The notes below the pieces were generated by a model that saw only the letters and a list, made by a program, of their open reading frames with translations, had not been told where the DNA came from and ran no database searches. The translations under genes and the position numbers were made by a program. From assembly GCA_009773645.1 (NCBI GenBank), contig WSYB01000006.1, positions 124,001-188,000 of the forward strand: a stretch of DNA of 64,000 bases, read 5' to 3'. Source of the DNA: Geobacteraceae bacterium (GTDB lineage Bacteria > Desulfobacterota > Desulfuromonadia > Geobacterales > Geobacteraceae). Positions 1,824-23,597 of the stretch are shown here, piece by piece (the first letter of the stretch is position 1; the number at the start of each line of letters is the position of its first letter).

Positions 1824-2864
1824 ATGAGAATAATTTTCTTCACATTCTGTAGTTTGGTTCTATTTGGTTGCTCAATTGAATCCCTCCTTCCAGAAGGAGG
1901 CATCACTATTATGGTTGTAGACGAAGAAGGAAAACCGATACAGAATATTCCTGTTGGAGTTGGCTTTGAAAGGAATACTGGCTCAGGCGTCACTTCAGTG
2001 GGTATTGATGGCAAGACTAATTCTAATGGTGTTTTTGAATCACGGGGCAAAACAACAAATTATGTATACTACCGAATCGACACAGACGGATATTACAGCA
2101 GCAGCGGTAAGTACAAGTTTGAAAAGGAAGTTGCAAAAAAATGGCAACCATGGAACCCCGAAATCAAAGTTACTTTACGTAAAATTGAAAAACCGGTTCC
2201 GATGTATGCAAGAAGATTTGATAAGGTACTTCCTCAAAAAGATAAAGATATTGGATGCGATTTGATAGCCAATGACTGGGTAGAGCCATATGGAAAGGGA
2301 ACGCATAGCGACATCGTTTTCCATCTTAAGAAGCAGTATTTAAGTGATGACGATTATGCTGCTGATTTATTAGTCAAATTTGCTGGCAAAAATGATGGAC
2401 ATGTAAAATACAATCTGGACATGTATAGCGGCAGTGAATTCAAATTGCCCAGATATGCCCCGGTTGACGGATATCAGAAACAATTTGTGCGCCATGTTGT
2501 CAAACAGCTTGGCAAGACAATAAAAGATGACCGAGATGACAGTGTTGGCTACGTATTTCGAGTTAGATCAGGTGTAAATAACTCCTACAATGCCATGTAC
2601 GGAAAAATTCAAAGAGATGTTGAAGTCAGGGCAATGGGAGAGGGAACGGCTGGCGTTGCATTCACCTATTACCTCAACCCGGATCATACTCGAAATCTCG
2701 AATTTGATTCAAAAAGAAATCTTTTTACAGATTTGGGGAGGGCTGAGCAGGTAGATGCAATGGTTCATGACACGCTACGTTCGCCGTTATCATTGTCATT
2801 ACAAATCGAGCGGCCGGGCAGGTACAGGAAAAGTAGCCCTTTTTTAAACAATAAAGGAGCGTAA
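1824..2864 (+). CDS. Putative lipoprotein, copy 2 of a tandem pair
   Basis: 346 residues. Lipoprotein signal with lipobox L-F-G-C (C16), then the same LLPEGGIT-VVDEEGKP carboxypeptidase-regulatory-like segment as the copy at 779, and the shared blocks WQPWNPEIK, PVPMYARR, KLPRYAP and NLEFDSKRNLFT. The C-terminal tail after GRAEQVDAM is longer than in copy 1 and has a different character (LRSPLSLSLQIERPGRYRK), so the 3' end may have been altered by fusion with unrelated DNA. No clear ribosome binding site is seen; the ATG follows directly on the stop of the 1734-1823 remnant. Function unknown; presumably attached to a membrane facing the periplasm. Confidence 0.75.
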   Translation: MRIIFFTFCSLVLFGCSIESLLPEGGITIMVVDEEGKPIQNIPVGVGFERNTGSGVTSVGIDGKTNSNGVFESRGKTTNYVYYRIDTDGYYSSSGKYKFEKEVAKKWQPWNPEIKVTLRKIEKPVPMYARRFDKVLPQKDKDIGCDLIANDWVEPYGKGTHSDIVFHLKKQYLSDDDYAADLLVKFAGKNDGHVKYNLDMYSGSEFKLPRYAPVDGYQKQFVRHVVKQLGKTIKDDRDDSVGYVFRVRSGVNNSYNAMYGKIQRDVEVRAMGEGTAGVAFTYYLNPDHTRNLEFDSKRNLFTDLGRAEQVDAMVHDTLRSPLSLSLQIERPGRYRKSSPFLNNKGA

Positions 2865-2867: not shown

Positions 2868-3221
2868 ATGATCAGTGGAAAAATTGTTTCAGCGCTTTTT
2901 ATTTCTGCCTTCTCAATCCTCTTTGCAGGAATTTTACAGGCCGCTTCCCTCGACAAGATCCAGTTTATCAAAATAGCTCCCCAGGATGCCAAGGCAGTTA
3001 TCAAGGGGGCTGACGGCAAGTTGCATGTAATCAAGCAGGGGGATGTGATTGAAGAAGTCCTGACAGTGAAGGAGATAGCTCAGGGGCGGATCGTGCTGGA
3101 GGAAAAGACCGAAAAGGGGCCGGAGACCGTTATTGTCAGGATGTTGAACGGGAAGGCAAAGATCGAGCGGCTGCGGAAACAACCGGACAGCCGGCCTGCG
3201 CTGGTGGCCCCGGGCAGATAG
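2868..3221 (+). CDS. Small exported protein of unknown function
   Basis: 117 residues with a good ribosome binding site (AAAGGAG) 7 bases before the ATG. Residues 1-25 form a Sec signal peptide (hydrophobic LFISAFSILFAGIL, then QAA just before SLDK). The mature part contains IKGADGKLHVIKQGDVI...GRIVLEE, a small beta-rich pattern seen in short periplasmic proteins such as the PilP/GspC-type homology region. That comparison is by pattern only. It starts 3 bases after the lipoprotein gene and could be in the same transcript; the giant gene follows after a 179-base gap. Confidence 0.65.
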   Translation: MISGKIVSALFISAFSILFAGILQAASLDKIQFIKIAPQDAKAVIKGADGKLHVIKQGDVIEEVLTVKEIAQGRIVLEEKTEKGPETVIVRMLNGKAKIERLRKQPDSRPALVAPGR

Positions 3222-3400: not shown

Positions 3401-6400
3401 ATGAAGAGATCAGCGTACTTGCGCGTAGATGCACTCAGACTGTTATGCATGGCTCTGAGTCTCCTTTTGTGTACCTCCTTTCTCGCAACCCCTTCTCAGG
3501 CCCAAGAGTTCACCGCCCGTTATGTCAATGATTACGGCAATGTCACCATAATGGAAATCACCGGAAATTACGACTCCCACAACCCTGACGGCTCTGTTAA
3601 TGTCTTACCGCGCCAGCTCATTGCCAGAGAGTTTTTCAAGACCCACAAGGACGACTACGACTTCCTTGTCATCTTCTCCAATTTTGACGTAAAAATGCCG
3701 AAATCGGAGGCGCGGGCGTTCTATTCATCGATCAAGAATGATGTGCGCGGCATCGGCCAACAGATTTTCGATCATACTGCACTGTACGGCAGCAACGGAA
3801 AACTGCAGGGGACCATCGACATGGGGAACATCGCGGGTAATGTCTCCGACCCCCTCCAGCCCGGCTTTGAACTCACACTCGACACCCTTTCTCACGAAAT
3901 GCTCCACCGGTGGAGCTCCTACGTCAGGTTCAAAGACACTACCGGAAACATGAGCACGGCCCTTCTTGGGGAAGACAGCTCCCACTGGAGCTATCTCCTC
4001 GACACGAAAGGGTCGCTTCAGTACGGCAACCAGTGGCGTGTCAACGGCGACGGCACCTTCACCTCCGGCTTGAACCGAAAATACTACAGCTCCCTCGACC
4101 TCTATCTCATGGGTATGATTGACAAGTCGAAGGTCCCTCCCATGCTTCTCATCGACAATCCGGCCATCGATCCGGCCAGGATGCCCGAAAACGGCGTTAC
4201 CATCAGCGGCACCCCCCGCTACGTCACCATCGACGACATCATCGCCGCCGAAGGGGAGCGTACCCCTGACGTAAAAGACTCACAGAAGCAGTTCAAAACA
4301 GCCTTTATATATGTCACAACACCCGGCACTTTTACCGGCCAGGAGTTGTACGGTATCGAGAATATCCGCAACGGTTTCCTCACCCGCTACTCCATCCTCA
4401 CCGACGGCAAGGGGCTCGTACAGATCGCCTCCACCCCCAGGGATGACGTCCCGACCAATCCGGGTGTCCGTCCCCCGACGACGGTCCCACGCTCGCTCCT
4501 GCCAAATATAGACGATGGAGTGAACTGGCTTACCGCCCACCAGATGACGGACGGGAGCTGGACCGATTTCGTCCTGACCACGGAACGGGACACAGCGGAG
4601 GCGGTGACGTCGCTCCAGCTTTTCCCGGCTGCGAACCGGCAGTTCCTGGTGGGGCTTGCCTGGCTGGGGAGCAGCGCGTCCGCCAATACCGATTTCCTCG
4701 CCCGGCGGATCGAGGCCGTCACCCGTTCCGGAGGCGATAACAGTGCGCTTATCCAGCAACTTCTCACCCGCCGCAATTCCGATGGCGGGTGGGGGAGCGG
4801 CAGCAACTTCCTCAGCAACCCTACCGATACAGCCCTTGCCCTAAAGGCGTTGGCCCTGGCCGGTTATGGCGACCAGCAGGTTATCGATCCGGCCATCGCC
4901 TATTTGCAGACGTCCCAAAACCCGGACGGCGGCTGGAGCGGTGAGGATACGGTGAGCACCATCCAACCGACCGCGGCGGTGGTCTCGGCGTTCAACGCCT
5001 ATCGGCAGAGTCATGCGCTCGATGCCAACCTGAGCCGTGCCATTGCATTCCTGGCCGGCAAACAGAACCCGGACGGCGGCTTCGGCAACAGCCCGAGCAC
5101 GGTATACGATTCGGCCGCGGCGCTCATGGCGCTCCAGGAGGCCGGAGCGGACAGGGGAGTCATCAGCGGCGGAGTGAACTACCTGCTGGGCCAGCAGGCA
5201 GACGACGGCAGCTGGTATGACAGTCCCTACCAGACTGCCTTGGCGGTCCGGGCGGTATGGCAGGCTAGCGTCGAGCCCGACCTGTCCATAAAACCCTCCG
5301 ATATGTTCTTCATCCCGGAAAAGGTGACAAGTCTGCCGACTAACGCCGTTTTGAGCGCAGTGCTCTGGAACCTTGGGCGGACGGATGTGCCCCAGGCGAA
5401 GGTAGCCATCTACGATGGCGCCATAGTCTCCGAGAAAAAGGTGGGAGAACAGACGGTTTCCTTGCCCGGCATGTCTCCGACCACGGTCACCTTCTCAGTG
5501 CCGGTTATCGACGGCAACGGCCATCTGTTCTACGTAGTTGTCGACCCTGACAACCTGATCAAGGAAACGAACAGGAGCAACAACAGCGCTTCAAAGCGGC
5601 TGCTGCCCGAGGCAACGTACGATTTTGCCGTGACGTCGTCCGATATAACAGCCTCCCCCAGCCAGCTCGATGTATTTCAGGAGATGAGGATCACGGCGAA
5701 GGTATCCAATCGGGGGACTTCGGACGCCTATAACGTACAGGTCAGATTCTTCATTGATGAACCAGGGGCGCCCTTCGAAATTGCCACCATAACGACCGAC
5801 ATACCGGCCGGTGCAAGCGTAGTGAGGGAGGTGGTGTGGAAGGCCGCCAAGGTAGGGGGGGGCATGCCGTTGGCGGTTGAGGCTGACCCGTTCAATGCCT
5901 TCACCGAGCTTTCTGAAGAGAACAATAAGGGCGCGACGTCCATTTCCGTAAACAACGTAGCAATCACCGACCCTAATCTCACCATTTCGAGCAGGAACAT
6001 CAATATTGCACCCAATCCGGCCAGGCAGGGCGGCAGTGCCACCGTCACCGCTACAGTCAAAAATGACGGTTTTTCAACTGCAACGGGTATTAAAGTAAGC
6101 TTTTACAGAGGTCCTTCGAGAGATAACAGCATTCTGTTCGGAGAAAAAGTCATACCCTCGCTGGCCCGGAATGAATCGGCGCAGGTTTCCCTCAACTGGG
6201 ACAACATCAACGACTCAGGCGAGACGAAAGTATTCATTCTGGTCGATCCGGAAAACACCATCACGGAGATAGCGGAAGACGATAATAACACTTCTGTCAG
6301 CCTGAGGATTCTCAGCCTGCCTGATCTTGCCGTATCTGCGAATTCCATAGTGTTGAACCCATCCGCACCAATGGAAAACGCGTCGGTGTCCATTGCTGTT

Positions 6401-9400
6401 ACGGTCAACAACTCAGGCGATCAGCAAGCTGCAGACGTGCCGGTCAATCTTTACGAAGGAGGCGCTTTACTCGGTACCCGGACGATTCCTCTTATCGGCG
6501 GTAATTCACAAGCCACTGCAACGTTTACTTACACTGCCAGCATGACGGGCTCCCATCAGGTGACCGCCGTTGTCGATCCCGCCGGCATCATCCAGGAACG
6601 AAGCAAGGATAATAACAGTGCGACGAAAACTTTCGCCGTGCAAAATTCCAAACTGTGGGTATCGGAGCAGTATATTTCTCCCAACGGTGATGGTGTCAAG
6701 GACAACTCCCAGCTCTTCTTTCGGCTGGCTGCAGTGACAACGGTGAAAGTCGTTGTCATAAACAAGAAAGGTGAGGCAGTCAGGACCTTCAGCGGCGGAA
6801 GTCTGGATAACAGCTTGGGCAACACTGTCGTCTGGGACGGGCTCAATGATGAGGGGATGGTAGTAACAGACGGGGAATATCAGCTTCAGATACGGGATGT
6901 AAACGAAGCAATACACGGCAGTCTGCCCGTTATAGTCGACAACAACCGTCTACCCCTGGCGGATGCAATCGGCACCGATTACTTCCTGAAGAAAAACATC
7001 GGTTGTAACGCCAACTTTAAAGGCGAGAATTGGAACTGGTTGAGTGATGAAAGCGGGTTTATCGTCAGCGCGGTGGGGCCTTACCCGCACTTGCATAGAA
7101 TACTGGGTTCGTCACTTGAGGGAGAAGAAATAAACAGAATATATCCGGCACCGCCTGAATATGAATATAAGTCAGCTGAGTTCGCTAACTTCAGTCAACA
7201 GCTTGGCGGAAATAAATATTCTTTCGTAAGCAAATGGAGCGGGAGTGAGTATACCTTGTTTATAGGAGAGCGCGAAAAAGTTTTAGGTTCCTTCTATCTC
7301 GGGACCTCACTCTCAACATTCGACCAGAAGTGGTCCGAGGATGGTTCCCGTTTAGCCATAAGCACCTACGGGTATAGTTGCCAAAGTTCACTGTATCTGG
7401 TGAATACGGCAAATGACCCAATTTCTTTCAAGAAGCTAAGGGGGCCGGAATGTGGCTACATCTCGTTTGATTTGTCGCCTGACGGCACTAAGGCAGCCTA
7501 CATTAGTAATAATAGATATGTTTATGTAGCTGATAATCGAAGTGGGGCGGCGTCATTGGTATATACATCAAATACCAACATTGTTGGTTCATTGAAATGG
7601 TTGGATAGTACAAGACTTATATTTTCAAAGTATCAAAATGGCACTTTCATATTTGATACGGTAAATGGTACGGAAACAAAAATCAGTAACTTTGATTATC
7701 CAACGCTGGCGCCGAATAATAAGAAACTGCTTGTTCTCACAGACTCAGGCGCTGATATTCTCGCAAACGACGGGTCTATTATAGGCCAGTATACTTCTTC
7801 CGTCATGCCTTCAGGGTATTCACCATCATGGTCTCCTGACAGTCGCTATGCCGTTGTAGATGTTTATAACGGCAATTTGGAACAGCTTATACTACTGGAT
7901 AGCGAAGCACATCATGAAATTGTAATCGCGCCTGAAAAGGCACCGATTACGTTCAAATGGCTTGACAGCAACACCCTCATATATGCCGGCTTCGGGGGTG
8001 AGTTAAAGTCTTACGACGTTCTTACGAATGAGACAAAAGTTATACATTCCTTTGCTGATGTTCCATGGGCAGGAACACGGGATTTTGCCGTCTCTCCATT
8101 GGGTGGTTATCTGTCATGGTCGGATCCGGATGACTATTCCTGCCAGAACCCCTCCTATTTTGTTGCCTCTTCCACGTTAAACCTGACCGGCGGCCTCAGT
8201 ATCGTGAAAGGGAGCCAGAACGTGGCCGTTAAAGGGACGGCGATGGATGCAAATTTCGGGGGATGGAAGCTGGAATACGCCGACACAAAAAGTCCCGATA
8301 CTTGGAACCTTGTCGCTCCGCCTTCCGATGTTCCTGGCGTAGACGATGTTTTTGCGACATGGGCACCGCCGTCCGCAGGAACGTACACCATCCGGCTCAC
8401 CGTGTGGGATAAGGCCGGCAACATGGTCGTGAGAACCCGGGGGCTCACGTGGATGTGGCCTCCCACTGTCAATGCATATAAATCGCTTGATGTCTTTTCT
8501 CCGAATGGTGACGGAGCCAAAGATACTGTCGAAATCTATTATACCCTTCCTTCTCCGGCTCCTGTGGAGTTCAGCGTGTATGATACAAATAACGCTCTCG
8601 TATATACGGGTTATTCTCCCTACGGTAGCGATCGCATATCTTGGGGCGGCATTGACGAGGCTGGCAAGATTGTTTCAGACAGCAAATACAAGATAAAAGT
8701 TCTGGACCAAGAATTCACTGTAGAAGTAGATAACACTCCACCAGATGTATCCATTCATTTGGGCAACGTAGTTCCTTATAAAAATGAATTCTTTAATTAT
8801 TTTTACTTGGAAATATCTGGTCATGTCTTTGATAAAAAAATAAAAAAATGGGTTGTCGAATATGGAGAAGGAGCGAATCCGCAGGAGTGGCATGAGTATT
8901 CAAAAGGTGAATACGTAATTATCAAGAGAGACGATAACGGAAGCCCCATTTTAAATCCGATAGGTGATGACCTGATCAAATTTGTCAGCGGTGAAGAGAT
9001 TCCATTTCTGGTAGGAAAAAAACTTAAAATAACGGCAGAGGACTTCGCTGGCAACAAAAGCAGTGCACTTTCCGGGTTTCTTGAGCAAAGGGTGGTTCTG
9101 TTTTCATGGGATGCAAACGCACCGTATCAATTGCAAAAAGATTCGTTTATGAAAACCATTGGATTCAAACACGACTGGAATTTCTATGACGGACAGGTTC
9201 TCAATCAGTGGGATTCAAGGGAAGTATTCAATGTTACGAGGTTAGATCCTGAAAATCCCCAGACCCATTCTCTGGAATATTTTGAATTGCTCAGGCATTC
9301 TGTTGCGGCACGATATCTTCAATATTTTCATGCGGGTGTCTGGCGCGATGCGGCTGTTGGTTTTGACTCCGGCAACGCACATTTTCATAACGAAAATGTC

Positions 9401-12400
9401 CGGGGTGCGGAGGCTTTAAGGATAAAGATCGTCGATGTCGACGGTAATGAATATCTTTCCAACACATACATCCCTTATCAACTTTCCAAGGAAAACCCTT
9501 CAGGTGAGGATCCTCCATTTATTGGCAGCGGTCATGGGGGGGACAATTCCTACGGGATCAGTGCATCTTTTCAATCGGCGCATATTGAGGCTGACGGTTG
9601 CGGAGTGCTGTCGGGGAAAATTGAAGTTCCCACGGACAGACTGCTGGTGCAGGATGCACAATTTCTTTCCTTCATGCTGCAGACGAACTCGGGGCCGAAG
9701 AGTTTGGGTCAGGTCGATCTTACTTCAAGAGGCCTTCGGACGTTACTGCTTGATACGTCGGATATTCCCGAAGGCGTTTATCCGTTAAAAGCCGTTTTCA
9801 CCCTTACGGATAGTACAACCAAGGAAATACCGTCCACTAATCAAGTCATAGTTGATCGAACACTTCCGACAGCCCACATCAGCTCTCCTGCCGGGGCTCA
9901 AGCAATATGTCCGGTTAAAACGGTTGACGCTCAGGGTGAATGGATCGGCGTGGATATAAGCGGTATAGTCGCTGATAATGTTAAGGTAAAAAGATATGAA
10001 TTGTTTTATGGAATCGGCGAAAACCCGGCTTCATGGCATCCGGCGTTAACCGGGGCCGGTAATGCTGCAAGACCCATTGCCGGCTCTGAACCTGTCAATG
10101 GTCGGATAGGTGTCTGGAACATGAGTAACGTCAACGGCTCTCGGTTTGCCTTGAAGCTGAAGGTCATTGATGAGGCCGGAAATGTCAGCTGCGACATCAA
10201 GACCTTTTCACTCGATACAGCTGTTGCGATATCGGCGCTTTCCGCCGACAAGGTTCTTTTTTCGAACAACAGCGAGGTGAAAGCAACTTTCCAAGTCAGC
10301 AAAAACGCTACCGTCGATGTCAAGGTCTTTAAGCTGCATGAAAACGCGGCTTTTGAAACAATCCCGGTAAGGACCATCATTTCAGGCCAGCAACAACAGG
10401 CTGGGCTTGGCAATGCCGCGTGGAACGGTCGAGACGATTCAGTATCCGCAGTGCTGGACGGCCCTTACGGCATTGCGGTTTATGCCACCGATTCCTGCGG
10501 CAATACGACAATGAAATGGACGTCGGTGGAAGTGGATAATACTCCCCCGGCTACCGTCATTACAAATCCTACCCAAACATTGCCGCCTACGGCCGGCAAC
10601 ATTGTTGAAGTGGCTGGAATCGCTGTGGATATCCATTTTGAATCCTACACCCTGGAAGCAGGGGAGGGGGACAACCCGGATTCCTGGCGGGTAATCTCAG
10701 CGAAAAACACTCCGGTAGGCAATGGGATCCTTGGCTCATGGAATACGTTTGGGCTCCAGGGGGTATGGTCTCTGCGTCTTACCGCCAGCGACTCAGTTGG
10801 CAATAAGGGTATTGCAAAAGTAGTGCTGAATCTCGATAACCGCAAAACGCTGATAAAAACCTTTGAAACCCTTCCTAAGGCGTTTTCTCCTAACAGCGAT
10901 CACAAGCTCGACACATCACTCCTTACGTATGAGCTTTCAGACCCATGCGACATCACAATCGACATAACTGATGCTGCTAATGCAATAGTAAAGACATATA
11001 CCTCTTCTATTTCAGCATCTGGAATTTACAATTACATTTGGGACGGGACTAACAATAGCAATGTAACGGTTTCCGACGGATATTACTCTGTCAAGATTAC
11101 TGCAACTCTGAAATCCAATGCATCTGTCACTCAGACTGAGACTATGACCGTTATGGTCGATACCACTCTTCCTGCCATTGATATCAAACAACCAGCCAGC
11201 AATGCATTCGTCAGCAAGACCGACATGGTAATAAATGGTGAAATCAACGACCTGAGTCTCATTAGCTATTCCTTGAGTTATACCGGCTCCGCCGGCACTA
11301 CGACACTTGATTCGGGGAACCAGAACAGGGTCGGCTATGCCTTCGGCACCATCCGCGACCTCGCCGAAGAGACCTATACCATCACGGCGGTGGCGAAAGA
11401 CCTGGGTGAGAACGAGCAGCGGGTTACGAAGGCATTTACCGTAGACAGGACGCCACCAAAGGTGACTCTTGATACGCCTAAGGCGGGGGGATATTTCGGA
11501 GCCGCGAAAAACAGCGTCGATATCGCCGGATCAATCGTAGAAAAAAACCTCGCCCACTACAGTCTACGGTACGGTAGCGGCGAATCGCCGGCACAATGGA
11601 ATGACGTGGCGAGGGGAGGCACGGTTCCCAATGCCTCCGGGCTCTATTCCTGGAACGTAGGGAAGGATGACGGCGTTGCTGACGGTGTCTACACCATCTC
11701 CCTGTATGCCAAAGACAAGGCAGGGATGGAGGGTGAAGTCAGAACAACTATTATTGTCGACAATGCTCCCCCGATTGTCTCAATAACGTCTCCGAAAAAC
11801 GGTGACTATGTGAAGGCCGCCTTCGACGTGCGGGGGAGCTCGTCGGATCTGAACCTTGACAAGGCGACATTGGAGCTGGCGAAAGGTGAATGCAGCACTG
11901 CCTTCAAATGGGTGCCTATCCGGACATTAACTGTCTCCGTCGCTGACGGCGTGCTGGAATCATGGAACGTGCTTCCTGCAGACGCAGAGTATTGCCTGAA
12001 GCTATCGGCTGAGGACAAGTCCGGCAACAAAGCGGAGACGAAGGTTTCCTTCAAGCTTGATGCTCATCCGCCGGCAGCTCCTGTATTGAGCGGGAAGATT
12101 GGCAACAGGATTGAGGCGCAGTTGGAGTGGACGCAAAATAGCGAGCAGGATATTGCGGGATATAACCTCTATCGCGATGGGCAGAAACAGAATTCGACCC
12201 TTCTGGCAAGTACCATCTATTCCTATCGTGACCTCAATCTCAAGGAAGGCGTATATGCATACACCGTCAAGGCTGTCGATCTGGCAGGAAACGAGAGCGA
12301 GACATCGAATACCGTCCAGCTGCGGATCGATGTGACCGGTCCGAATGTTCGAATCGCTTCGCCAATCGATGGCGCCAAGGTGAGCAACCTTGTTGATATC

Positions 12401-15400
12401 AGAGGGACCGCCTACAGCAAGGACGATTTCAAACAGTACCGGATTTCTATAGGGGAGGGTGCTACTCCTGAGGCATGGATTCTCATAAGAACGTCACCTG
12501 TTCCTCTTTCCTATGGTTCGTTGACACCTTGGGATACGCTTGCGCTTTCCGAGGGTACCTATGCCGTCAAGTTGGAAGGGGAGGATATTTCCGGCAACAT
12601 TACCACTCATCAGGTGCTCGTCACCATTGATAACTCGCCGCCGAAAGCCCCGGTTATTGTTTCCGCAGTGCCGAGTGGTTCTGATGTAACCTTGACCTGG
12701 GAGCCTTCCGATCCGGATGTGGCGGGCTATCTCATTTACAGGAACGACCGGCTGGCCAACGCCTCCGGCATTGTCATAGACAATCTCAAGCAGTACCTGG
12801 TTCCCGGCACAGCCTATGTCGATAGGGCATTGTCGGACGGAGCGTACAGCTATTATGTCGCTGCCTTGGATCAGGCAGGGAATCCGAGCAACTCGGCAAC
12901 GAAGAATGTCGTGGTTGAAACACGCGCACCCCATGCCACCATCGTCGAGCCGGCCGCCGGTAGCAAATTCGAGACGAAGATTCTGGTGAGGGCTGAGACG
13001 CCGGATAATGATATCCAGTTCGTCAAATTCAGATATAAAAGATCCCAGGATACCACGTGGACCGATTTCGGTACGGCGACAAAAGCGCCATATACGGCCT
13101 ACCTCGATCTGCACGGTTTTCCATACGACGATTATCAGATTCAGGCGGTTGCCACCGATACCGCCACTCCGGAGAAGACCGATCCCGCACCTTCATCCCT
13201 CACGGTAACCTATGCCGACCTGACCGCGCCCGATGCACCTCGAAATCTCCGGGCGCTGACCAATGAGAAAGAAGTGACGCTCTCCTGGCTGGCGTGTATG
13301 GAATCCGATTGCGCCGGCTATAACATATACCGGACTGTTGCTGAAGCAAGGGGCAAAATCAATACGGCGGTTGTCGCTAAAGCGGGTACTCCCGCATATG
13401 TGGATTCGAATCTCGATGACGGCGTGTATGGCTACGAAATTACCGCCGTCGATACCTACGGCAACGAAAGCAAGCATTCCAACAGCGCCTTGGCAAGAGT
13501 TTACGCACCACTTATAGTTCAGCCATTTACCCCGACCAGCCAGGCTGTCTTTAAGCTTGAAGGCAGCAATACGGAAGCAAATGCCACCGTGGAGCTTTTC
13601 CGTGAAGCGACGCCGGGACAGTTTTCTTCTTTGGGTACAGCTGCTGCGGACGGCCAGGGCAGGTACAGTTTCGACAATGTCAGTCTTTCCCTCGGCGAAA
13701 ACAGGATAAGAGCCAAGGCGACCGATGGTGTCGGCAATATAAGCAGAACCTCCGACACGATAGTCGCGGTTTACGACGAAATACCGTCGGCCCCCGTTAA
13801 TCTTGCTGCCTCAGCACAAAATTATGGGGTCAACCTGACCTGGGACCCGGCAAATACCGATCCTAATATCTCAGGATATAACGTCTACCGCGATGGGGTT
13901 AAACTTAATCCTCCACGTGCCGTTACGGACGGAAGCGCCACGGCATCATCCACGTACATCGAGCCGACATGGCCGACTCCTACGGAGCACAGTCCGTCAC
14001 TGGCTTTGGATCAAAATGAAGCAACCCAATGGCGCAGCGATTACCTGTATAACAGCGATTATTGGTTCCAAATCGATCTGCCCGCGCCTGCATTGATCAG
14101 CCAGCTCAATATCCGCTGGGGGACGGTCAATGCAGCAGTATACGGAGGCAAAGACTTTGAAATCCAGGCATGGTCCGGATATGCCTGGATTCCGCTGGCA
14201 AAGGTCACCGGAAACGACAAAAAAGAAAATATCTTCGATTTCACGCAATCCTATAGGACCGACAAGCTCAGGATTCACATCACTGCAGCTACTGACACAA
14301 GGAGTTATAAAGAGGTCAGAATAGCTGAAATTGGGATTTTGAAAGATAACCTGATACCTCAGACCTCCTATGGCGATTCGAATCTGAAAGATCATGAGTA
14401 TGGGTACAAGGTTACCGCCGTTGACGGCTACGGTTTTGAAAGTGCCCCTTCCGAAGCAAAAGTTCCGGTCGGCGATATGATAGCGCCTGCCAATCCGGCA
14501 CGTCTTACGGCGACGGCTGTTCTTTCAACCATTACTCTCGAATGGAGTTCAAATACGGAACCGGACCTTGCCGGCTATCATGTTCACCGCGACTCTCCGA
14601 ATGGATGGGTTAAACTTACTCCTACGTTACTCCCAGGAACTGCGAGCAACTATAGAGACTCAAATTTACCGAACGGGACTTACACGTACCGGCTCACCGC
14701 GGTAGACATGGTTGGCAACGAAAGCGGTCCCGACGAGGCTGTGGCAGCCGTGGCGGTGGCGCCACCCCCATCTCCTTCTGCGCTTCGGGTCACGCCGGTT
14801 CCGGAAGGGAAGGCGCTCGATCTTTCATGGGAATTCGTCGGGGGTGCGGCAGTTTCCTTAAACCTGTACAGGAGTACTACGACCGGCGGTCCCTACCAGA
14901 AAATCAGTCAAGTCCCGGCCACCACGCATACGTACCGCGATACCGGGCTTACAAACGGTACCGTTTATTACTACGCAACAGCGGCAGCAGATGGCTTAGG
15001 CAATGAGGGTGCCTATTCCGCTGAGGTCTCTGGAGTCCCTCTTGATTCAGTCGCACCTTCGAAACCGCTTCTGTCGTACCCGGCCAGAGCCGGAGTGCAG
15101 GCAGTACTTTATAGCGATAGAAGCAATGTTGCAGGCATGACCGAACCGGGAGCCTCTGTCGAGTTATTCAGGGGAAGTGACTCTTTGGGTAGGGCCAGTG
15201 CGCTCGATGCCGACACTATTCAGGCAACGCTGTCCTCATATTCCGGGTACCAGGTGGCTCTGTCGCCTGATGGTGGCTACCTGGCTTATTCCGGCTATGA
15301 TGGGTATCTCCGGCTTAGGAATATGTCTACTGGAACGGCAGAGAAGCTGGTACAAAACGCCCAGACGCCTGCGTGGTCACCCGCGGGGGATAAAATCGCA

Positions 15401-18400
15401 CTTCAGTATCGAGACTCTGCTTATAACTATCGAATCGGCATATACGACCTGAAAGCAAGAAAAATAGTGCCTCTGACTGATGATGCGTACATCAATGAAG
15501 GGGCTCCATCCTGGTCCGATGACGGAGAGAAGATACTCTTTTACAGCAACAAGAGTGGCTATCAAAACGTATGGATCAAAGATATAGATTCGAATTCTCT
15601 GACACAAGTAACTACGAATGCCTATGCCACCTATCCAAAAGTTTCACCGGATGGGAAAATAGTGGCTTTCTTCGAGGGCGCGAACCTCAAGATTATTGAC
15701 GTGGCGACGGGAAGAACGACCCCGATCGATAGTAATGCCAATCCGAATTCGCACAGCTGGGCTTCCGACAGCAGCAAACTCCTTTTCAAGGCGTACAGGA
15801 ATTCAAACTACGGAATTTTCATACTCGATATGCGGACACTTGGCGTGGTGCAGGTTGGGGATGTTAGCAATTATATGACCAAGCCCGCCTGGTCTCCCGA
15901 CAACCGGAGTATCGTCTATGGAGACCGCACCAATTCTGTATGGATAGTTGATTTGCAGGGTGAGAAGAGGCTGCTGCAGCAAAGCCTGCAAAGCCTCCCA
16001 TATTTGGATTGGGGAAAAACCGGTGAGATACGTTATCTGGATTACACCAATGCCTATATCGCCAAGATACAAGGATATTTCGTTTTTAAAGATGTTGAAC
16101 TGGATGCCGGCGAAAATATTTTTTATGCCATTGCTACAGACGAATCAGGGAATGCAAGTCCATCATCAGAGGAAATCACGGTAGTTTATGACACGAGTAA
16201 GTTGCCGGATATTTCTATTATTCCGGATGATGTGTCGGTTTATCCTTCTTATCCAAAGCCTGGGGAGGAGGTAGTCATCAAGGCAGTAGTCAGAAACGCC
16301 ACCCGGAATCCCGTTGATAATGCGGAAGTGGATCTGTATTTATGGGATACAGCCGGGAACCTGGAATTGATCAAGTCCACGATCGTCCCGCATTTGGATG
16401 CCGAAGGGACGGAAACCGTTGCCGCAAGAGTGAATGCCGGCGGCCTGGCAGGAGCCCAGACGATAATTGCCGTCGTTGATTCTTCGGATGCAATAATGGA
16501 ACTCATTGAGAGCAACAACTACGCGACCAGCGAGTTCTACGTTACGGACAAGGAGGAGACGTTCGTCTCCACGACTCTAGATGCCGATAGGTATGCGAGC
16601 AACAGGAGTGTGGCAATCAGTGTGTCGCTGCGTAACAGCGGCCGGGAACGGTCAGGGAATATGGATATCCTGATTGAAGATGCATACGGAAACAAGGTGG
16701 CATCTGTAGACTCTGTATCGGTCAACCTGCCGTATGGGGGCAAGGAGAGTTTTTCCTTTGCCTGGAACACGGCCTCCGTATTTGCCGGGTCCTACCAAGT
16801 CCATACTATTGTCAAGGGGGCAGAGGGGGCTATCTCGGAAAGCACAGTTCCTTTTGCCATACTCCCGGATATAAGCATTGAGACTTCTGTAGTTACAGAC
16901 AGGTTGACTTATGGTCCCAACGAGAACGTTGCAGTCACGACATCTCTGAAGAATAAAGGCACAAATTACATTGTTCCGGGGTTGAAAGTCAGGGTCAGGA
17001 TCTCCAACACCCAGAACATGGTCCAGTTCGCGGACGAGAGAGTCATACAGAATCTTCTCCCTGGCATGGGCAGCCGCCTAGCCTCAAACTGGAACACCGG
17101 CCTTGTATCTCCGGGGGATTACAGCATAGTAGTCGAGGCGCTTCTTGACGGCAAAATGGTCTCAAGCACCGCTACGCGAGTTGCAATTAATCCGGTGTCG
17201 CTTGTGACGGGTATGGTTGAAGTTGATACGCCGACTGTGTTGGTCGGCAACACCTTCAGGTGCGCATACACCGTCAGCAACTACGGGAATGCTGAGACGA
17301 GCGGCGTTCTTAAGGTTGCCATCATCGATCCGGCGACCATGGTTATTGCTGCGACAGATGAGAAGCCGGCAACGCTTGCCAAGGACGGCACGCAGACCGG
17401 AGAGTTCATCCTCTCATCCCAGGGGCTGGAGCTGAAGCATTACAGAATCAACCTCCAATATGTCTCGCCTGACAACCAGAAAACCGTCGCGAGCACATCG
17501 ATTACGTTGAAAGATGGAACCCCTCCGGTGGTGACAGTTGTTTCGCCAATGCAGAATGCTACCTACAATTCAACCATAGATCTTGCTGCATTGGCTTCCG
17601 ACAATGCATCGGGCGTGGAGATGGTTGCATACCAGATTGATGGAGGGACCTGGAAGCTTCTCCAGCTTGCCGATCCGACAAAAGGGAGATATTCGGCGGC
17701 GTGGGAGCCGACCATTGCCGACAACGGCCCCCACACCGTCGGCTTCAGGGGAACCGACAGGGCCGGCAACACAAGCACACCGGTTTCAGTGTCGTTCCTC
17801 ATCCAGATGGACAATGTTCCTCCGGTCACGATTCTTTCCATTGGGGCGCCGAAAATCGAAGCCAGCAGCGCCACCTTCGTCACAAGCGCCTCCACCTTCA
17901 CCCTGAGCGCCACGGACAATTTCTCCGGCGTTGCCAGGACGGAGTACCGCATTGATGACGGGGCATGGGCCCTCTTCGCGCCGTTCACCATTCCGGGCGA
18001 GAGGGCACATGTTATTGAATTCCGGAGTCAGGACAACGTGGGGAACCTGGAAGCCGTGAAATCGCAACCCATATTCGTCGACAATACTCCACCTGCCTCT
18101 GAGGTTGCCATTGGCTCACCACATTATTCCGCCAGCGGCAACATTTATGTCAGCGGCAGGACCAACCTGGCAATCGTCGCAACCGACGGTGCCAGCGGTC
18201 TCAAGACCAGCGAATACAGCATCGACAAGGCCGCTTTTGTGACTTATGCCGAACCGTTCAACCTGCCCGCACTGCCGGAAGGTCTGCATTCCATTGCCTA
18301 TCGCTCGACCGACAACCTGCGGAACCAAGAACAAGCGAAACAGTTGACCGCCATCCTCGACAAGACCCCGCCGCGAACTGTCATCACCGCATCCGACCCC

Positions 18401-19915
18401 CTGACGGAGGGGGTGGTGAATGCCGTTTCGCCGAAGACGCTCTTCACCCTGACCGCTACCGACAGCCTCGCAGGGGTGAAGGGAGTCTGGTACCGGATCG
18501 ACGAAGGCCAGTGGCAGCTTTTCTCGCAAGGGTTTACCCTGGAGACTTTGCCAGTCGGGCAGCACCGGATATCCTTCGCCTCCGAGGACTACGTCGGCAA
18601 CAGCGAAGCAGAACAGGCCATAACAGTGAGGGTCGTCAGCGCCGAGTTGAAGAAAGGGATTTCCTCCGAGCCCTTCGTCCTGGTGAGCCCTTGGGATGAT
18701 AACGATGATGACCATCGGAAAAACAAGAAGGCCGAGGTGGACAGGCTCACCCCTGTCCTGGACGCCATCGGTGTCACATACCACGTCGCCTCGGACGAGG
18801 ACGACTTCGAGGCCTCCATACGTTCCGGGAAATACAACATCTACCTCCTCATCGACGACAAGGAGGAAAGGGTGAATGAGGAGCTGAGGGAAGGGGTCTA
18901 CTCAGGGGACGGCCTTATCTTCCTCAAGACGAGACCAAACGCCAATCCCGACCTGGACGAAATCTTCGGCGTCAAATTTACCGGTAAATCGACCGACAGC
19001 GACCCCGAAGTCGAGCTCGAGAAGGGCGAGACATGTGATGAGGAGCGCTTCCGGAGCAGTGGAAAGCCGGTGCAGGCGAACATCGTCACGGCTTCCGCCA
19101 GGGCCTGCGGCTACGTCAGCGACAGGCACGACCGTTACCCCGCCGTGGTGTACAACGAGTATGGCAAGGGAAAAGTGCTCCTGTACACATTCAATATCCT
19201 GAGTTCACTCGACACGATGAAAGCCACCGAGCTCTTAAAGAGCGCGATCAGCCGGGTGAAACCTGAAGGCCGCGCCGTAAGGGCTCTTGGGAGCGTTCCT
19301 GTCAGGATTGAGGTGGTGAACAGCACCGAGCCGCTGGGGCTCAGGGTTGTGGAGGGTTTCCCCCCCACGAGCACGGTCGACACGCCGAAACCCGAAGGGA
19401 CGATCAGCGGCCAGCAGGTTACGTGGGAGAGGTTCTTGGACGGGGGTGCCGCCGCGCTCTTCACCTACTTCCTCAACCTTCCGGACGCGAAGGGCGAGTA
19501 CCTCCTTGCAACCGAGGCGAAGTACGGTAATTACGGCGAGTACCGGCCTCTGGCGGGGGCCGAGCTGAAACTCACCGTTACCGGCACTTCCGCCGAGCTC
19601 CTGCAGGATGCGGTGACCGCACTGACCGGGCTTGCTGCGCCGACCAGGCAGGACAGGAGGCTGATTGCCGGCACCATAGCGGAACTCCAGCAGGTGCGTG
19701 GAGACGCGTCTTCGCAGGAGGATGCGGAGGAGAACATAGAGAGGATAACCGAAGCGGCGGAAAAGGTTGGGAGGCTTTCCTTCGACGCCAGTGAGGCCCG
19801 CCTGGCGATAGACAGGGTGATGAGGGTATGGCAGCGGAAGTGGTATCTATTGCGGGAAGTGCGGCGGGAATCACCACGGGAGGATTGCCCGTCGGGTGAT
19901 GATCGGCGTTCCTGA
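3401..19915 (+). CDS. Giant exported multidomain protein (5504 residues)
   Basis: AGGAGG lies just before the ATG; a Sec signal peptide ends near A34. Approximate domains: 40-340, metalloprotease-like region with HEMLH (H165, E166, H169; H195 a possible third ligand); 366-625, four repeats of the squalene-cyclase/prenyltransferase type (DGGWG, DGGWS, DGGFG, DDGSW); 626-1083, CARDB-like repeats; FlgD-like Ig modules with SPNGDG near 1092 and 1698 and SPNSDH near 2495; beta-propeller 1, 1195-1583; several Ig domains; FN3 repeats from 2889; a discoidin (F5/8C)-like domain 3509-3648 lying inside an FN3; beta-propeller 2, 3942-4220, lying inside an Ig domain; CARDB-like 4265-4700; OmpL47-like repeats 4705-5080; an amidotransferase-like fold 5085-5285. 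No membrane anchor or sorting tag is recognised at the C-terminus. It is probably secreted or on the surface and may bind or process polymers. The domain calls are from pattern reading. Confidence 0.85.
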   Translation: MKRSAYLRVDALRLLCMALSLLLCTSFLATPSQAQEFTARYVNDYGNVTIMEITGNYDSHNPDGSVNVLPRQLIAREFFKTHKDDYDFLVIFSNFDVKMPKSEARAFYSSIKNDVRGIGQQIFDHTALYGSNGKLQGTIDMGNIAGNVSDPLQPGFELTLDTLSHEMLHRWSSYVRFKDTTGNMSTALLGEDSSHWSYLLDTKGSLQYGNQWRVNGDGTFTSGLNRKYYSSLDLYLMGMIDKSKVPPMLLIDNPAIDPARMPENGVTISGTPRYVTIDDIIAAEGERTPDVKDSQKQFKTAFIYVTTPGTFTGQELYGIENIRNGFLTRYSILTDGKGLVQIASTPRDDVPTNPGVRPPTTVPRSLLPNIDDGVNWLTAHQMTDGSWTDFVLTTERDTAEAVTSLQLFPAANRQFLVGLAWLGSSASANTDFLARRIEAVTRSGGDNSALIQQLLTRRNSDGGWGSGSNFLSNPTDTALALKALALAGYGDQQVIDPAIAYLQTSQNPDGGWSGEDTVSTIQPTAAVVSAFNAYRQSHALDANLSRAIAFLAGKQNPDGGFGNSPSTVYDSAAALMALQEAGADRGVISGGVNYLLGQQADDGSWYDSPYQTALAVRAVWQASVEPDLSIKPSDMFFIPEKVTSLPTNAVLSAVLWNLGRTDVPQAKVAIYDGAIVSEKKVGEQTVSLPGMSPTTVTFSVPVIDGNGHLFYVVVDPDNLIKETNRSNNSASKRLLPEATYDFAVTSSDITASPSQLDVFQEMRITAKVSNRGTSDAYNVQVRFFIDEPGAPFEIATITTDIPAGASVVREVVWKAAKVGGGMPLAVEADPFNAFTELSEENNKGATSISVNNVAITDPNLTISSRNINIAPNPARQGGSATVTATVKNDGFSTATGIKVSFYRGPSRDNSILFGEKVIPSLARNESAQVSLNWDNINDSGETKVFILVDPENTITEIAEDDNNTSVSLRILSLPDLAVSANSIVLNPSAPMENASVSIAVTVNNSGDQQAADVPVNLYEGGALLGTRTIPLIGGNSQATATFTYTASMTGSHQVTAVVDPAGIIQERSKDNNSATKTFAVQNSKLWVSEQYISPNGDGVKDNSQLFFRLAAVTTVKVVVINKKGEAVRTFSGGSLDNSLGNTVVWDGLNDEGMVVTDGEYQLQIRDVNEAIHGSLPVIVDNNRLPLADAIGTDYFLKKNIGCNANFKGENWNWLSDESGFIVSAVGPYPHLHRILGSSLEGEEINRIYPAPPEYEYKSAEFANFSQQLGGNKYSFVSKWSGSEYTLFIGEREKVLGSFYLGTSLSTFDQKWSEDGSRLAISTYGYSCQSSLYLVNTANDPISFKKLRGPECGYISFDLSPDGTKAAYISNNRYVYVADNRSGAASLVYTSNTNIVGSLKWLDSTRLIFSKYQNGTFIFDTVNGTETKISNFDYPTLAPNNKKLLVLTDSGADILANDGSIIGQYTSSVMPSGYSPSWSPDSRYAVVDVYNGNLEQLILLDSEAHHEIVIAPEKAPITFKWLDSNTLIYAGFGGELKSYDVLTNETKVIHSFADVPWAGTRDFAVSPLGGYLSWSDPDDYSCQNPSYFVASSTLNLTGGLSIVKGSQNVAVKGTAMDANFGGWKLEYADTKSPDTWNLVAPPSDVPGVDDVFATWAPPSAGTYTIRLTVWDKAGNMVVRTRGLTWMWPPTVNAYKSLDVFSPNGDGAKDTVEIYYTLPSPAPVEFSVYDTNNALVYTGYSPYGSDRISWGGIDEAGKIVSDSKYKIKVLDQEFTVEVDNTPPDVSIHLGNVVPYKNEFFNYFYLEISGHVFDKKIKKWVVEYGEGANPQEWHEYSKGEYVIIKRDDNGSPILNPIGDDLIKFVSGEEIPFLVGKKLKITAEDFAGNKSSALSGFLEQRVVLFSWDANAPYQLQKDSFMKTIGFKHDWNFYDGQVLNQWDSREVFNVTRLDPENPQTHSLEYFELLRHSVAARYLQYFHAGVWRDAAVGFDSGNAHFHNENVRGAEALRIKIVDVDGNEYLSNTYIPYQLSKENPSGEDPPFIGSGHGGDNSYGISASFQSAHIEADGCGVLSGKIEVPTDRLLVQDAQFLSFMLQTNSGPKSLGQVDLTSRGLRTLLLDTSDIPEGVYPLKAVFTLTDSTTKEIPSTNQVIVDRTLPTAHISSPAGAQAICPVKTVDAQGEWIGVDISGIVADNVKVKRYELFYGIGENPASWHPALTGAGNAARPIAGSEPVNGRIGVWNMSNVNGSRFALKLKVIDEAGNVSCDIKTFSLDTAVAISALSADKVLFSNNSEVKATFQVSKNATVDVKVFKLHENAAFETIPVRTIISGQQQQAGLGNAAWNGRDDSVSAVLDGPYGIAVYATDSCGNTTMKWTSVEVDNTPPATVITNPTQTLPPTAGNIVEVAGIAVDIHFESYTLEAGEGDNPDSWRVISAKNTPVGNGILGSWNTFGLQGVWSLRLTASDSVGNKGIAKVVLNLDNRKTLIKTFETLPKAFSPNSDHKLDTSLLTYELSDPCDITIDITDAANAIVKTYTSSISASGIYNYIWDGTNNSNVTVSDGYYSVKITATLKSNASVTQTETMTVMVDTTLPAIDIKQPASNAFVSKTDMVINGEINDLSLISYSLSYTGSAGTTTLDSGNQNRVGYAFGTIRDLAEETYTITAVAKDLGENEQRVTKAFTVDRTPPKVTLDTPKAGGYFGAAKNSVDIAGSIVEKNLAHYSLRYGSGESPAQWNDVARGGTVPNASGLYSWNVGKDDGVADGVYTISLYAKDKAGMEGEVRTTIIVDNAPPIVSITSPKNGDYVKAAFDVRGSSSDLNLDKATLELAKGECSTAFKWVPIRTLTVSVADGVLESWNVLPADAEYCLKLSAEDKSGNKAETKVSFKLDAHPPAAPVLSGKIGNRIEAQLEWTQNSEQDIAGYNLYRDGQKQNSTLLASTIYSYRDLNLKEGVYAYTVKAVDLAGNESETSNTVQLRIDVTGPNVRIASPIDGAKVSNLVDIRGTAYSKDDFKQYRISIGEGATPEAWILIRTSPVPLSYGSLTPWDTLALSEGTYAVKLEGEDISGNITTHQVLVTIDNSPPKAPVIVSAVPSGSDVTLTWEPSDPDVAGYLIYRNDRLANASGIVIDNLKQYLVPGTAYVDRALSDGAYSYYVAALDQAGNPSNSATKNVVVETRAPHATIVEPAAGSKFETKILVRAETPDNDIQFVKFRYKRSQDTTWTDFGTATKAPYTAYLDLHGFPYDDYQIQAVATDTATPEKTDPAPSSLTVTYADLTAPDAPRNLRALTNEKEVTLSWLACMESDCAGYNIYRTVAEARGKINTAVVAKAGTPAYVDSNLDDGVYGYEITAVDTYGNESKHSNSALARVYAPLIVQPFTPTSQAVFKLEGSNTEANATVELFREATPGQFSSLGTAAADGQGRYSFDNVSLSLGENRIRAKATDGVGNISRTSDTIVAVYDEIPSAPVNLAASAQNYGVNLTWDPANTDPNISGYNVYRDGVKLNPPRAVTDGSATASSTYIEPTWPTPTEHSPSLALDQNEATQWRSDYLYNSDYWFQIDLPAPALISQLNIRWGTVNAAVYGGKDFEIQAWSGYAWIPLAKVTGNDKKENIFDFTQSYRTDKLRIHITAATDTRSYKEVRIAEIGILKDNLIPQTSYGDSNLKDHEYGYKVTAVDGYGFESAPSEAKVPVGDMIAPANPARLTATAVLSTITLEWSSNTEPDLAGYHVHRDSPNGWVKLTPTLLPGTASNYRDSNLPNGTYTYRLTAVDMVGNESGPDEAVAAVAVAPPPSPSALRVTPVPEGKALDLSWEFVGGAAVSLNLYRSTTTGGPYQKISQVPATTHTYRDTGLTNGTVYYYATAAADGLGNEGAYSAEVSGVPLDSVAPSKPLLSYPARAGVQAVLYSDRSNVAGMTEPGASVELFRGSDSLGRASALDADTIQATLSSYSGYQVALSPDGGYLAYSGYDGYLRLRNMSTGTAEKLVQNAQTPAWSPAGDKIALQYRDSAYNYRIGIYDLKARKIVPLTDDAYINEGAPSWSDDGEKILFYSNKSGYQNVWIKDIDSNSLTQVTTNAYATYPKVSPDGKIVAFFEGANLKIIDVATGRTTPIDSNANPNSHSWASDSSKLLFKAYRNSNYGIFILDMRTLGVVQVGDVSNYMTKPAWSPDNRSIVYGDRTNSVWIVDLQGEKRLLQQSLQSLPYLDWGKTGEIRYLDYTNAYIAKIQGYFVFKDVELDAGENIFYAIATDESGNASPSSEEITVVYDTSKLPDISIIPDDVSVYPSYPKPGEEVVIKAVVRNATRNPVDNAEVDLYLWDTAGNLELIKSTIVPHLDAEGTETVAARVNAGGLAGAQTIIAVVDSSDAIMELIESNNYATSEFYVTDKEETFVSTTLDADRYASNRSVAISVSLRNSGRERSGNMDILIEDAYGNKVASVDSVSVNLPYGGKESFSFAWNTASVFAGSYQVHTIVKGAEGAISESTVPFAILPDISIETSVVTDRLTYGPNENVAVTTSLKNKGTNYIVPGLKVRVRISNTQNMVQFADERVIQNLLPGMGSRLASNWNTGLVSPGDYSIVVEALLDGKMVSSTATRVAINPVSLVTGMVEVDTPTVLVGNTFRCAYTVSNYGNAETSGVLKVAIIDPATMVIAATDEKPATLAKDGTQTGEFILSSQGLELKHYRINLQYVSPDNQKTVASTSITLKDGTPPVVTVVSPMQNATYNSTIDLAALASDNASGVEMVAYQIDGGTWKLLQLADPTKGRYSAAWEPTIADNGPHTVGFRGTDRAGNTSTPVSVSFLIQMDNVPPVTILSIGAPKIEASSATFVTSASTFTLSATDNFSGVARTEYRIDDGAWALFAPFTIPGERAHVIEFRSQDNVGNLEAVKSQPIFVDNTPPASEVAIGSPHYSASGNIYVSGRTNLAIVATDGASGLKTSEYSIDKAAFVTYAEPFNLPALPEGLHSIAYRSTDNLRNQEQAKQLTAILDKTPPRTVITASDPLTEGVVNAVSPKTLFTLTATDSLAGVKGVWYRIDEGQWQLFSQGFTLETLPVGQHRISFASEDYVGNSEAEQAITVRVVSAELKKGISSEPFVLVSPWDDNDDDHRKNKKAEVDRLTPVLDAIGVTYHVASDEDDFEASIRSGKYNIYLLIDDKEERVNEELREGVYSGDGLIFLKTRPNANPDLDEIFGVKFTGKSTDSDPEVELEKGETCDEERFRSSGKPVQANIVTASARACGYVSDRHDRYPAVVYNEYGKGKVLLYTFNILSSLDTMKATELLKSAISRVKPEGRAVRALGSVPVRIEVVNSTEPLGLRVVEGFPPTSTVDTPKPEGTISGQQVTWERFLDGGAAALFTYFLNLPDAKGEYLLATEAKYGNYGEYRPLAGAELKLTVTGTSAELLQDAVTALTGLAAPTRQDRRLIAGTIAELQQVRGDASSQEDAEENIERITEAAEKVGRLSFDASEARLAIDRVMRVWQRKWYLLREVRRESPREDCPSGDDRRS

Positions 19916-21819: not shown

Positions 21820-21830
21820 GACCGTAGTGC

Positions 21831-21868
21831 CATTATGTCGGCAGATGATAGTATGTGCCGACATAATG
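21831..21868 (-). promoter_or_regulatory. Operator palindrome of the AbiE operon
   Basis: CATTATGTCGGCA (21831-21843) and TGCCGACATAATG (21856-21868) are perfect 13-bp inverted repeats separated by 12 bp, 12 bases upstream of the AbiEi ATG. A further half-site, ATATCGGCA, lies just beyond at about 21875-21883. AbiEi proteins are known to bind inverted repeats at their own promoter, so autoregulation is the likely role. Confidence 0.65.
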
Positions 21869-23502: not shown

Positions 23503-23597
23503 TTTTCAGCAAATGCTGAAAATCAATATTTTGATGAAATGCCTGCTTGACAGCACAAACGTTTCACTGTATAAAGTTATTTCAGCAATTGCTGAAA
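23503..23597 (+). promoter_or_regulatory. Strong promoter framed by two operator palindromes
   Basis: A near-consensus sigma-70 promoter, TTGACA (23547-23552), 17-bp spacer, TATAAA (23570-23575), lies between two matching palindromes: TTTTCAGCA-AA-TGCTGAAAA (23503-23522) and TTTCAGCAATTGCTGAAA (23580-23597). The second covers the expected transcription start. Extra half-sites (CTGAAA, TTTTCAG) lie just upstream at 23491-23509. The layout predicts repression by the AbiEi-type regulator encoded directly downstream. Confidence 0.75.

What the first reader, a model, noticed from the sequence alone, without database searches (positions are those of the whole stretch)
3401..19915. A 5504-residue exported protein with a combination of domains that seems unusual
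One frame of 16.5 kb codes for a signal peptide, an HExxH region, an alpha/alpha-toroid block, CARDB, FlgD-like, Ig, FN3, discoidin-like and OmpL47-like modules, two beta-propellers and an amidotransferase-like end. I know of no named system with this order. It could be a surface machine for binding and processing a polymer.
Basis: partly seen in the sequence, partly recalled or inferred. Interest (0 to 1): 0.72.

Follow-up and report, generated by a model that had tools for sequence, protein, structure and literature searches.

The report
Giant partner of bacterial RHS toxins
The 5,504-residue exported protein is not a one-off: the same giant recurs in several bacterial phyla, usually beside a gene for an RHS-type bacterial toxin and often behind a small gene shaped like a secretion-pore adaptor, which suggests an unrecognised way of exporting or displaying such toxins.

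Summary
In detail: one intact frame, window 3401-19915, 5504 aa, with nearly all modules listed (propeller 1 and the amidotransferase-like end rest on weak evidence). The combination is not unusual: 20 further giants (5397-7089 aa; one cut by a contig end) from Geobacteraceae, Nitrospirota, other deltaproteobacteria, Acidobacteriota, Beta- and Gammaproteobacteria and a myxobacterium align collinearly; HExxH and a later HWS are invariant in 22 of 22. Propeller 1 and the tail vary most.

The neighbours explain more than the domains. (1) A 117-aa exported protein just upstream (2868-3221) is predicted to fold like the secretin-binding domain of PilP/GspC; relatives precede 13 of 20 testable giants, and its profile alone led to one more giant. 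(2) An inactive-transglutaminase, mostly RHS, toxin-type gene lies on the same strand beside 16 of 21 giants; here 5.3 kb upstream, outside the window, and a broken copy of it opens the window.

Best reading: the giant is the large extracytoplasmic partner of this toxin class, which had no signature neighbour in the 2012 survey, probably routed through a secretin by the small protein. Linkage is shown; export route, proteolysis and delivery are inferred.

The parts
1..441 (+). 3' end of a broken second copy of the transglutaminase-type toxin gene (472-aa frame that starts outside the window)
   Evidence: 83% identical over 441 aa to the 2070-aa protein upstream; L153:18024-19442
576..779 (+). 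remnant of the C-terminal end of the same protein family
   Evidence: 46% identity to residues 1895-1960 of the G054 homologue
779..1732 (+). lipoprotein-like gene, 317 aa, paralogue of the 322-aa gene behind the toxin-type gene; possible immunity gene (inferred)
   Evidence: 43-51% identity among the three copies
1824..2864 (+). lipoprotein-like gene, 346 aa, third paralogue
   Evidence: a homologue lies upstream of the G075 giant
2868..3221 (+). small exported protein, 117 aa, predicted PilP/GspC-HR-type fold; proposed secretin adaptor
   Evidence: AF2 pLDDT 89.2, pTM 0.67; ten best VIA rows are PilP, GspB, GspC, pilus-machine or Dot/Icm chains, Z 8.6-6.4, next row 5.4; weaker genome hits of its profile are PilP in 8 of 8 examined
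3401..19915 (+). giant exported protein, 5504 aa
3503..4456 (+). N-terminal zincin-like block, aa 35-352, HExxH 165-169, H195
   Evidence: AF2 pLDDT 96.3, pTM 0.93; HExxH and HWS invariant in 22 of 22 giants
4733..5236 (+). alpha/alpha toroid, aa 445-612
   Evidence: Pfam SQHop_cyclase_C 4.5e-18 and Prenyltrans 6.3e-6
5621..6628 (+). CARDB array, about aa 741-1076
   Evidence: Pfam CARDB 2e-55, 4 stretches
13937..14299 (+). F5/8 type C (discoidin-like) domain, aa 3513-3633
   Evidence: Pfam 1.9e-8
15260..15805 (+). TolB/PD40 propeller stretch, aa 3954-4135
   Evidence: NCBIfam TolB 8.3e-28, below its full-length cut-off; Pfam PD40 3.4e-15
17879..18640 (+). OmpL47-type repeats, about aa 4827-5080
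   Evidence: NCBIfam 4.7e-62, 4 stretches
18746..19912 (+). exchangeable C-terminal tail: degenerate amidotransferase-like domain, beta domain, helical end (aa 5116-5504)
   Evidence: alignment A2; in 6 of 141 genomes of the order and 13 of 25 genomes searched because they hold N-block loci; weak Glyco_hydro_42M hits

Best explanation
The giant is the large extracytoplasmic partner of an inactive-transglutaminase/RHS polymorphic toxin system. Shown: a recurrent locus in which a small exported protein with a predicted PilP/GspC-HR-type fold often precedes the giant and a transglutaminase(-RHS) toxin-type gene lies beside it on the same strand, in bacteria of several phyla. Inferred, in order: both proteins leave by Sec; the small protein docks the giant (alone or with the toxin) on a secretin, GspD of the type II system or PilQ of the type IV pilus; the 5-7 thousand residue fibre then sits outside and carries, presents or stabilises the toxin; the zincin-like N-terminus processes the toxin or a target; the exchangeable tail (helical tail, DUF7305, possible membrane anchor) fixes the fibre or its partner.
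For: Collinear giants: 20 comparators; most of aa 35-4800 is shared by 17-20 of 20. Toxin-type gene on the same strand beside 16 of 21 giants including the window's: downstream in 12 (G147, G151, G152, G153, G155, G158, G160, G161, G162, G163, G164, G165), frame-to-frame distance from an overlap of 184 to a gap of 890 bases; upstream in four of the window's own order (G000, G054, G074, G075), 1.2-5.3 kb away. In the order, N-blocks of 59% identity or more occur in 9 and full-length-type transglutaminase genes in 11 of 141 genomes, 8 in common, Fisher 4.6e-10 (both limits set after seeing the lists, kinship not removed); none of the 9 genomes with N-blocks of 50-55% identity has a full-length-type gene (one has a weak match). 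Small gene: 13 of 20 giants with enough upstream sequence, a 14th by eye; 0 of 28 frames in which the block is not N-terminal, 23 of them with 450 bp or more upstream. Predictive test: its profile in 395 genomes of the phylum gave two strong hits, the window and G438, and in G438 it precedes a 5920-aa giant. It goes with the giant rather than the toxin: of three genomes with the toxin-type gene but no giant, none has it. Fold PilP/GspC-like. Its divergence follows the N-block's: r 0.66, 0 of 5000 shuffles, 19 loci (shared ancestry alone could give part of this). T2SS GspD over cut-off in 18 of 21 giant genomes. The neighbour matches the published inactive-transglutaminase class: Cys absent in 14 of 15; RHS, DUF6531 and Tle1-like C-terminus.
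Against: Five giants show no toxin-type gene beside them: G142, G145, G157 with flanks read, G149 and G156 cut by contig ends on the downstream side; G149 has none in its genome, the other four have matches on other contigs. Seven of 20 giants show no small gene by profile (one found by eye), and four of those seven still have the toxin-type gene even when that one is left out. The small-gene profile was built partly from the loci it is then counted in; only searches are free of that. Three giant genomes, all Acidobacteriota, have no GspD over cut-off; the tool's own control has it over cut-off in 2 of 14 well-known genomes, but how common it is in relatives without a giant was not searched. 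Three genomes have the toxin-type gene without a giant. Three of the four upstream toxin-type genes, the window's own included, have no RHS motif. Nothing shows an interaction, protease activity or export.
Confidence: 0.5

Rival explanations
1. A general giant surface protein (adhesin or stalk with a protease head), exported with help of the small protein, that lies beside toxin genes because both sit in variable surface-gene islands.
For: Module content is typical of surface proteins; five giants lack the toxin-type gene next door; tails vary.
Against: Same-strand adjacency within 0.9 kb in 12 genomes of several phyla and the co-occurrence in the order are hard to get from loose islands.
Confidence: 0.27
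2. The giant is a secreted protease comparable in logic to CpaA/CpaB, and the small protein is its chaperone or active-site guard rather than a secretin adaptor.
For: HExxH plus invariant H195; CpaA is a T2SS metzincin with Ig-like repeats and an adjacent chaperone whose tail blocks the active site (PMC7542363, passages).
Against: The small protein's predicted fold is that of secretin-binding HR/PilP domains; no evidence of proteolysis; the toxin link is unexplained.
Confidence: 0.13
3. The N-terminal block is not an enzyme any more and the giant is a passive scaffold.
For: In 9 of 63 sampled relatives, none of them one of the full giants, the first His is Gln; no PDB fold at Foldseek E<=0.001.
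Against: HExxH and H195 are invariant in 22 of 22 giants at 30-48% overall identity, which speaks for a kept metal site.
Confidence: 0.1

Closest known systems
Inactive-transglutaminase RHS polymorphic toxins (Zhang et al. 2012, PMC3482391; passages and section 41 read)
   Same: The neighbouring gene: N-terminal transglutaminase domain without the catalytic Cys, RHS repeats in most, variable C-terminus, Sec signal suggested.
   Different: The paper's table gives '-' for signature neighbours of the T2SS/Sec class; here it has a 5-7 thousand residue partner and a secretin-adaptor-like gene. Later work outside the held library could not be checked.
CpaA/CpaB of Acinetobacter (PMC7542363, passages)
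   Same: HExxH protease with Ig-like repeats, T2SS route, dedicated partner encoded next to it.
   Different: CpaA has the extended metzincin motif and is far smaller (size recalled); CpaB is a membrane-bound chaperone; no toxin gene.
PilP / GspC HR domains
   Same: Predicted fold of the small protein, VIA Z up to 8.6; its profile finds PilP next best.
   Different: Stand-alone exported domain; below Pfam cut-offs; encoded with the giant.
CdiA/CdiB two-partner toxins (recalled)
   Same: Giant exported fibre used with polymorphic toxins.
   Different: CdiA carries its toxin in cis and uses a TpsB pore; here fibre and toxin are separate genes.

Membership tests
Metzincin peptidases | extended zinc motif HEXXHXXGXXH (as worded in PMC7542363) | tested here: not met
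   HExxH is not followed by Gly-x-x-His at the metzincin spacing; the next invariant His lies 26 residues after the second
Metzincin peptidases | Met-turn | tested here: inconclusive
   candidate M237 in 16 of 22 giants, Ala in 5, Thr in 1
Metzincin peptidases | metzincin fold | tested here: inconclusive
   best VIA rows leishmanolysin Z 4.6 (rmsd 4.4, 160 aligned) and ADAM10 Z 3.9; no Foldseek match at E<=0.001
PilP/T2SSC | Pfam gathering score | tested here: not met
   T2SSC listed at E<=1 for 7 of 10 members, best E 0.0012, window protein 16.2 bits against 27; PilP 2 of 10
PilP/T2SSC | secretin-binding HR-type fold | tested here: met
   predicted model; ten top VIA rows all from PilP, GspB, GspC, pilus-machine or Dot/Icm structures, Z 8.6-6.4, next 5.4; but Foldseek alone none at E<=0.001, and only two or three rows reach Z 8
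PilP/T2SSC | binding to a secretin N0 domain | not testable with these tools
   needs an experiment
Inactive-transglutaminase RHS polymorphic toxin (neighbour) | transglutaminase domain with a lost catalytic residue | tested here: met
   Transglut_core in 3 of 3 scanned; Cys position (assigned from memory of the family) not Cys in 14 of 15 distinct aligned genes
Inactive-transglutaminase RHS polymorphic toxin (neighbour) | RHS repeats after it | tested here: inconclusive
   RHS by Pfam in G074 and G153, not in the window's own 2070-aa neighbour; RHS-like motif counts of 3-16 in nine of the twelve downstream cases, the other three being contig-end fragments
Inactive-transglutaminase RHS polymorphic toxin (neighbour) | different C-terminal toxin domains | tested here: met
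   Tle1-like in G153 and L070; alpha/beta-hydrolase-like, just below cut-off, in G000
Class I glutamine amidotransferase (C-terminal tail) | profile match above cut-off | tested here: not met
   only Glyco_hydro_42M below cut-off, 3 of 6

The most novel reading that the evidence does not exclude
An unrecognised secretin-dependent export and display apparatus for RHS polymorphic toxins: a stand-alone PilP/GspC-type domain delivers a 5-7 thousand residue fibre with a new zincin-type head through GspD or PilQ, and the fibre presents and cleaves the separately encoded toxin at the cell surface.
Probability: 0.3. Interest if true: 0.87.

Novelty: new variant of a known kind. Interest (0 to 1): 0.74.

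Why it matters
RHS toxins of the Sec-dependent, inactive-transglutaminase class had no signature neighbour in the main survey (PMC3482391, table text), so how they leave the cell was open. A recurrent giant plus a secretin-adaptor-like protein gives a concrete, deletable candidate. It also points out a family of 5-7 thousand residue proteins whose peptidase-like head is not in Pfam.

Tried and rejected
Considered and dropped: thioester (TED) function of the toroid, as no CGEQ or CAEQ motif exists in 22 giants; an assembly artefact; a general co-occurrence of the N-block with the toxin-type gene, as genomes with the more distant N-blocks lack the full-length type; signalling genes shared by some upstream flanks (PAS kinases, chemotaxis receptors) as part of the locus, because they recur in only 3 of 30 flanks each; toxin-type or RHS genes beside stand-alone copies of the tail domain in four loci of the order (L035, L036, L037, L040: none in the stretches fetched). 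Foldseek gave no match at E<=0.001 for either model. GspD in relatives without a giant was not searched. Papers: searches listed nothing on this locus (listings seen; for 12 of 37 and for 15 of 17 rows); one huge-protein survey (PMC11573180, find only) has no mention of CARDB, FlgD, Geobacter, Nitrospira or fn3.

Counting notes. 13 of 20 for the small gene leaves out G145 (31 bp upstream) and counts G164 through a weak hit (E 2e-5). 16 of 21 counts partial toxin-type genes at contig ends (G152, G160, G163) and a split one (G161). over all N-terminal blocks with 450 bp or more upstream: small gene in 25 of 56; over frames of 3300 aa or more: 15 of 25. G438 (found later) is in the 22 but not in the 21. 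Class or phylum of three taxa was looked up; the rest is recalled or in the record title.

Full report
Observation. The frame 3401-19915 is intact, 5504 aa. Pfam and NCBIfam confirm CARDB, toroid, FlgD, Ig, FN3, F5/8 C, TolB/PD40 propeller and OmpL47 repeats. The N-terminal block with HExxH (aa 35-352) matches no Pfam family above cut-off and no PDB sequence. The first propeller and the amidotransferase-like end are weak.

How common it is. In the order, the N-block occurs in 19 of 141 genomes, one of them at E 2.2e-4 with a stop inside and unconvincing. Many carry frames that run beyond the fetched stretch. I fetched 20 long frames, 5397-7089 aa, one open at its contig end; all align with the window giant in order, over 2914-4945 residues at 30-48% identity. 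From aa 35 to about 4800 most stretches are shared by 17-20 of 20; aa 1050-1575 (propeller 1) by 7-13, aa 1876-2100 by 7-10, and the last 400 residues by 6-7. Other tails are DUF7305 (G054, G074, G151) and, by eye, possible membrane anchors in G161 and G162. More distant N-blocks (QE..H in 9 of 63 sampled) sit in shorter proteins of other groups.

N-terminal block. The AlphaFold2 model is confident (pLDDT 96.3, pTM 0.93). Foldseek found no PDB match at E<=0.001; the second look ranked leishmanolysin first at Z 4.6 and ADAM10 next at 3.9, too low to name a family. In 22 giants H165, E166, H169, H195, W196, S197, D233, Y235 and G238 never vary, while M237 does. I read it as zincin-like with H195 as a possible third ligand; the extended metzincin motif is absent.

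The small upstream gene. Window 2868-3221 encodes 117 aa with a signal-like start. Relatives lie directly upstream of 13 of 20 testable giants, plus one by eye, and of none of 28 frames in which the block is not N-terminal. The profile used for that count was built partly from the same loci. Pfam T2SSC appears below cut-off in 7 of 10; GspC is the top PDB hit at E 0.0092. The model (pLDDT 89.2, pTM 0.67) has as its ten best rows PilP, GspB, GspC, pilus-machine and Dot/Icm chains, Z 8.6-6.4, above unrelated rows at 5.4 and less; Foldseek alone gave nothing at E<=0.001. In 395 genomes of the phylum its profile gave 25 with a match, two of them strong: the window and G438. G438, not among the loci used before, then proved to hold a 5920-aa giant right behind it, at the end of a contig. 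Eight of the 23 weak hits were examined; all eight are PilP over Pfam's cut-off.

The toxin-type neighbour. Upstream of the window lie a 2070-aa protein with a transglutaminase domain (L153:10847-17059), a 322-aa gene and a truncated 472-aa second copy whose end opens the window. Two paralogues of the 322-aa gene lie at 779-1732 and 1824-2864. Three other giants of the order (G054, G074, G075) have the same gene upstream, in G074 as a 3444-aa transglutaminase-RHS protein. In twelve other genomes a homologue follows the giant on the same strand, within 0.9 kb; examples are 3585 aa with 20 RHS stretches and a Tle1-like end in G153 and 3172 aa in G147. In all, 16 of 21 giants; G142, G145, G157, G149, G156 are the exceptions. 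The Cys position of the transglutaminase is not Cys in 14 of 15, as in the class described by Zhang et al. 2012 (PMC3482391, passages), whose table gives no signature neighbour for Sec-exported toxins and who suggest that the domain anchors the toxin. In 141 genomes of the order the close N-block (9) and the full-length-type gene (11) share 8 (Fisher 4.6e-10, limits set afterwards, relatedness not removed). Three genomes (G051, G053, G100) have the toxin-type gene without giant, and these also lack the small gene. In G047 the giant is split in two genes and the toxin-type gene lies about 4 kb upstream on the same strand.

Mechanism. Shown: conservation, gene order, loss of the transglutaminase Cys; predicted: fold of the small protein. 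Inferred: the small protein docks on GspD (over cut-off in 18 of 21 giant genomes) or PilQ; the giant leaves and holds or processes the toxin. CpaA/CpaB (PMC7542363, passages) is a precedent for a T2SS peptidase with Ig-like repeats and its own partner.

Verdict.

Noticed in passing
window 20556-21864 (-) and 23547-25510 (+): AbiE-like pairs flank the giant's downstream side: AbiEi_2 (E 5.5e-20) and AbiEii (below cut-off) on the + strand; a second, similar-looking pair on the - strand was read by eye only.
   Followed up: partly
L070:3-8693: RHS protein with DUF6531 and a Tle1-like catalytic domain upstream of a small-gene plus 2766-aa N-block protein.
   Followed up: partly
L031:6843-16978: In G047 the giant appears as two adjoining genes, 1960 aa with the N-block and 1418 aa with the tail domain.
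   Followed up: partly
L050, L053, L060, L066, L039, L041, L042: The N-block also sits near the C-terminus of other 1500-3900 aa frames; no small gene was found before these frames, though L050, L039 and L042 have no upstream sequence.
   Followed up: no
L153:17056-18024, window 779-1732 and 1824-2864: Three paralogous exported or lipoprotein-like genes follow the intact and broken toxin-type copies, as immunity genes would; not tested.
   Followed up: partly
L179:1-14238: Duganella has a second tail-domain protein (3022-aa frame) followed within a few bases by a 2710-aa RHS frame.
   Followed up: partly
L087, L089, L091, L093, L094, L099, L100, L103, L105: A subgroup of distant N-blocks has QExxH in place of HExxH, 9 of 63 sampled.
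   Followed up: no
L044:1691-7570: The 1960-aa transglutaminase protein upstream of the G054 giant keeps the family's N-terminal part but shows no RHS motif.
   Followed up: partly
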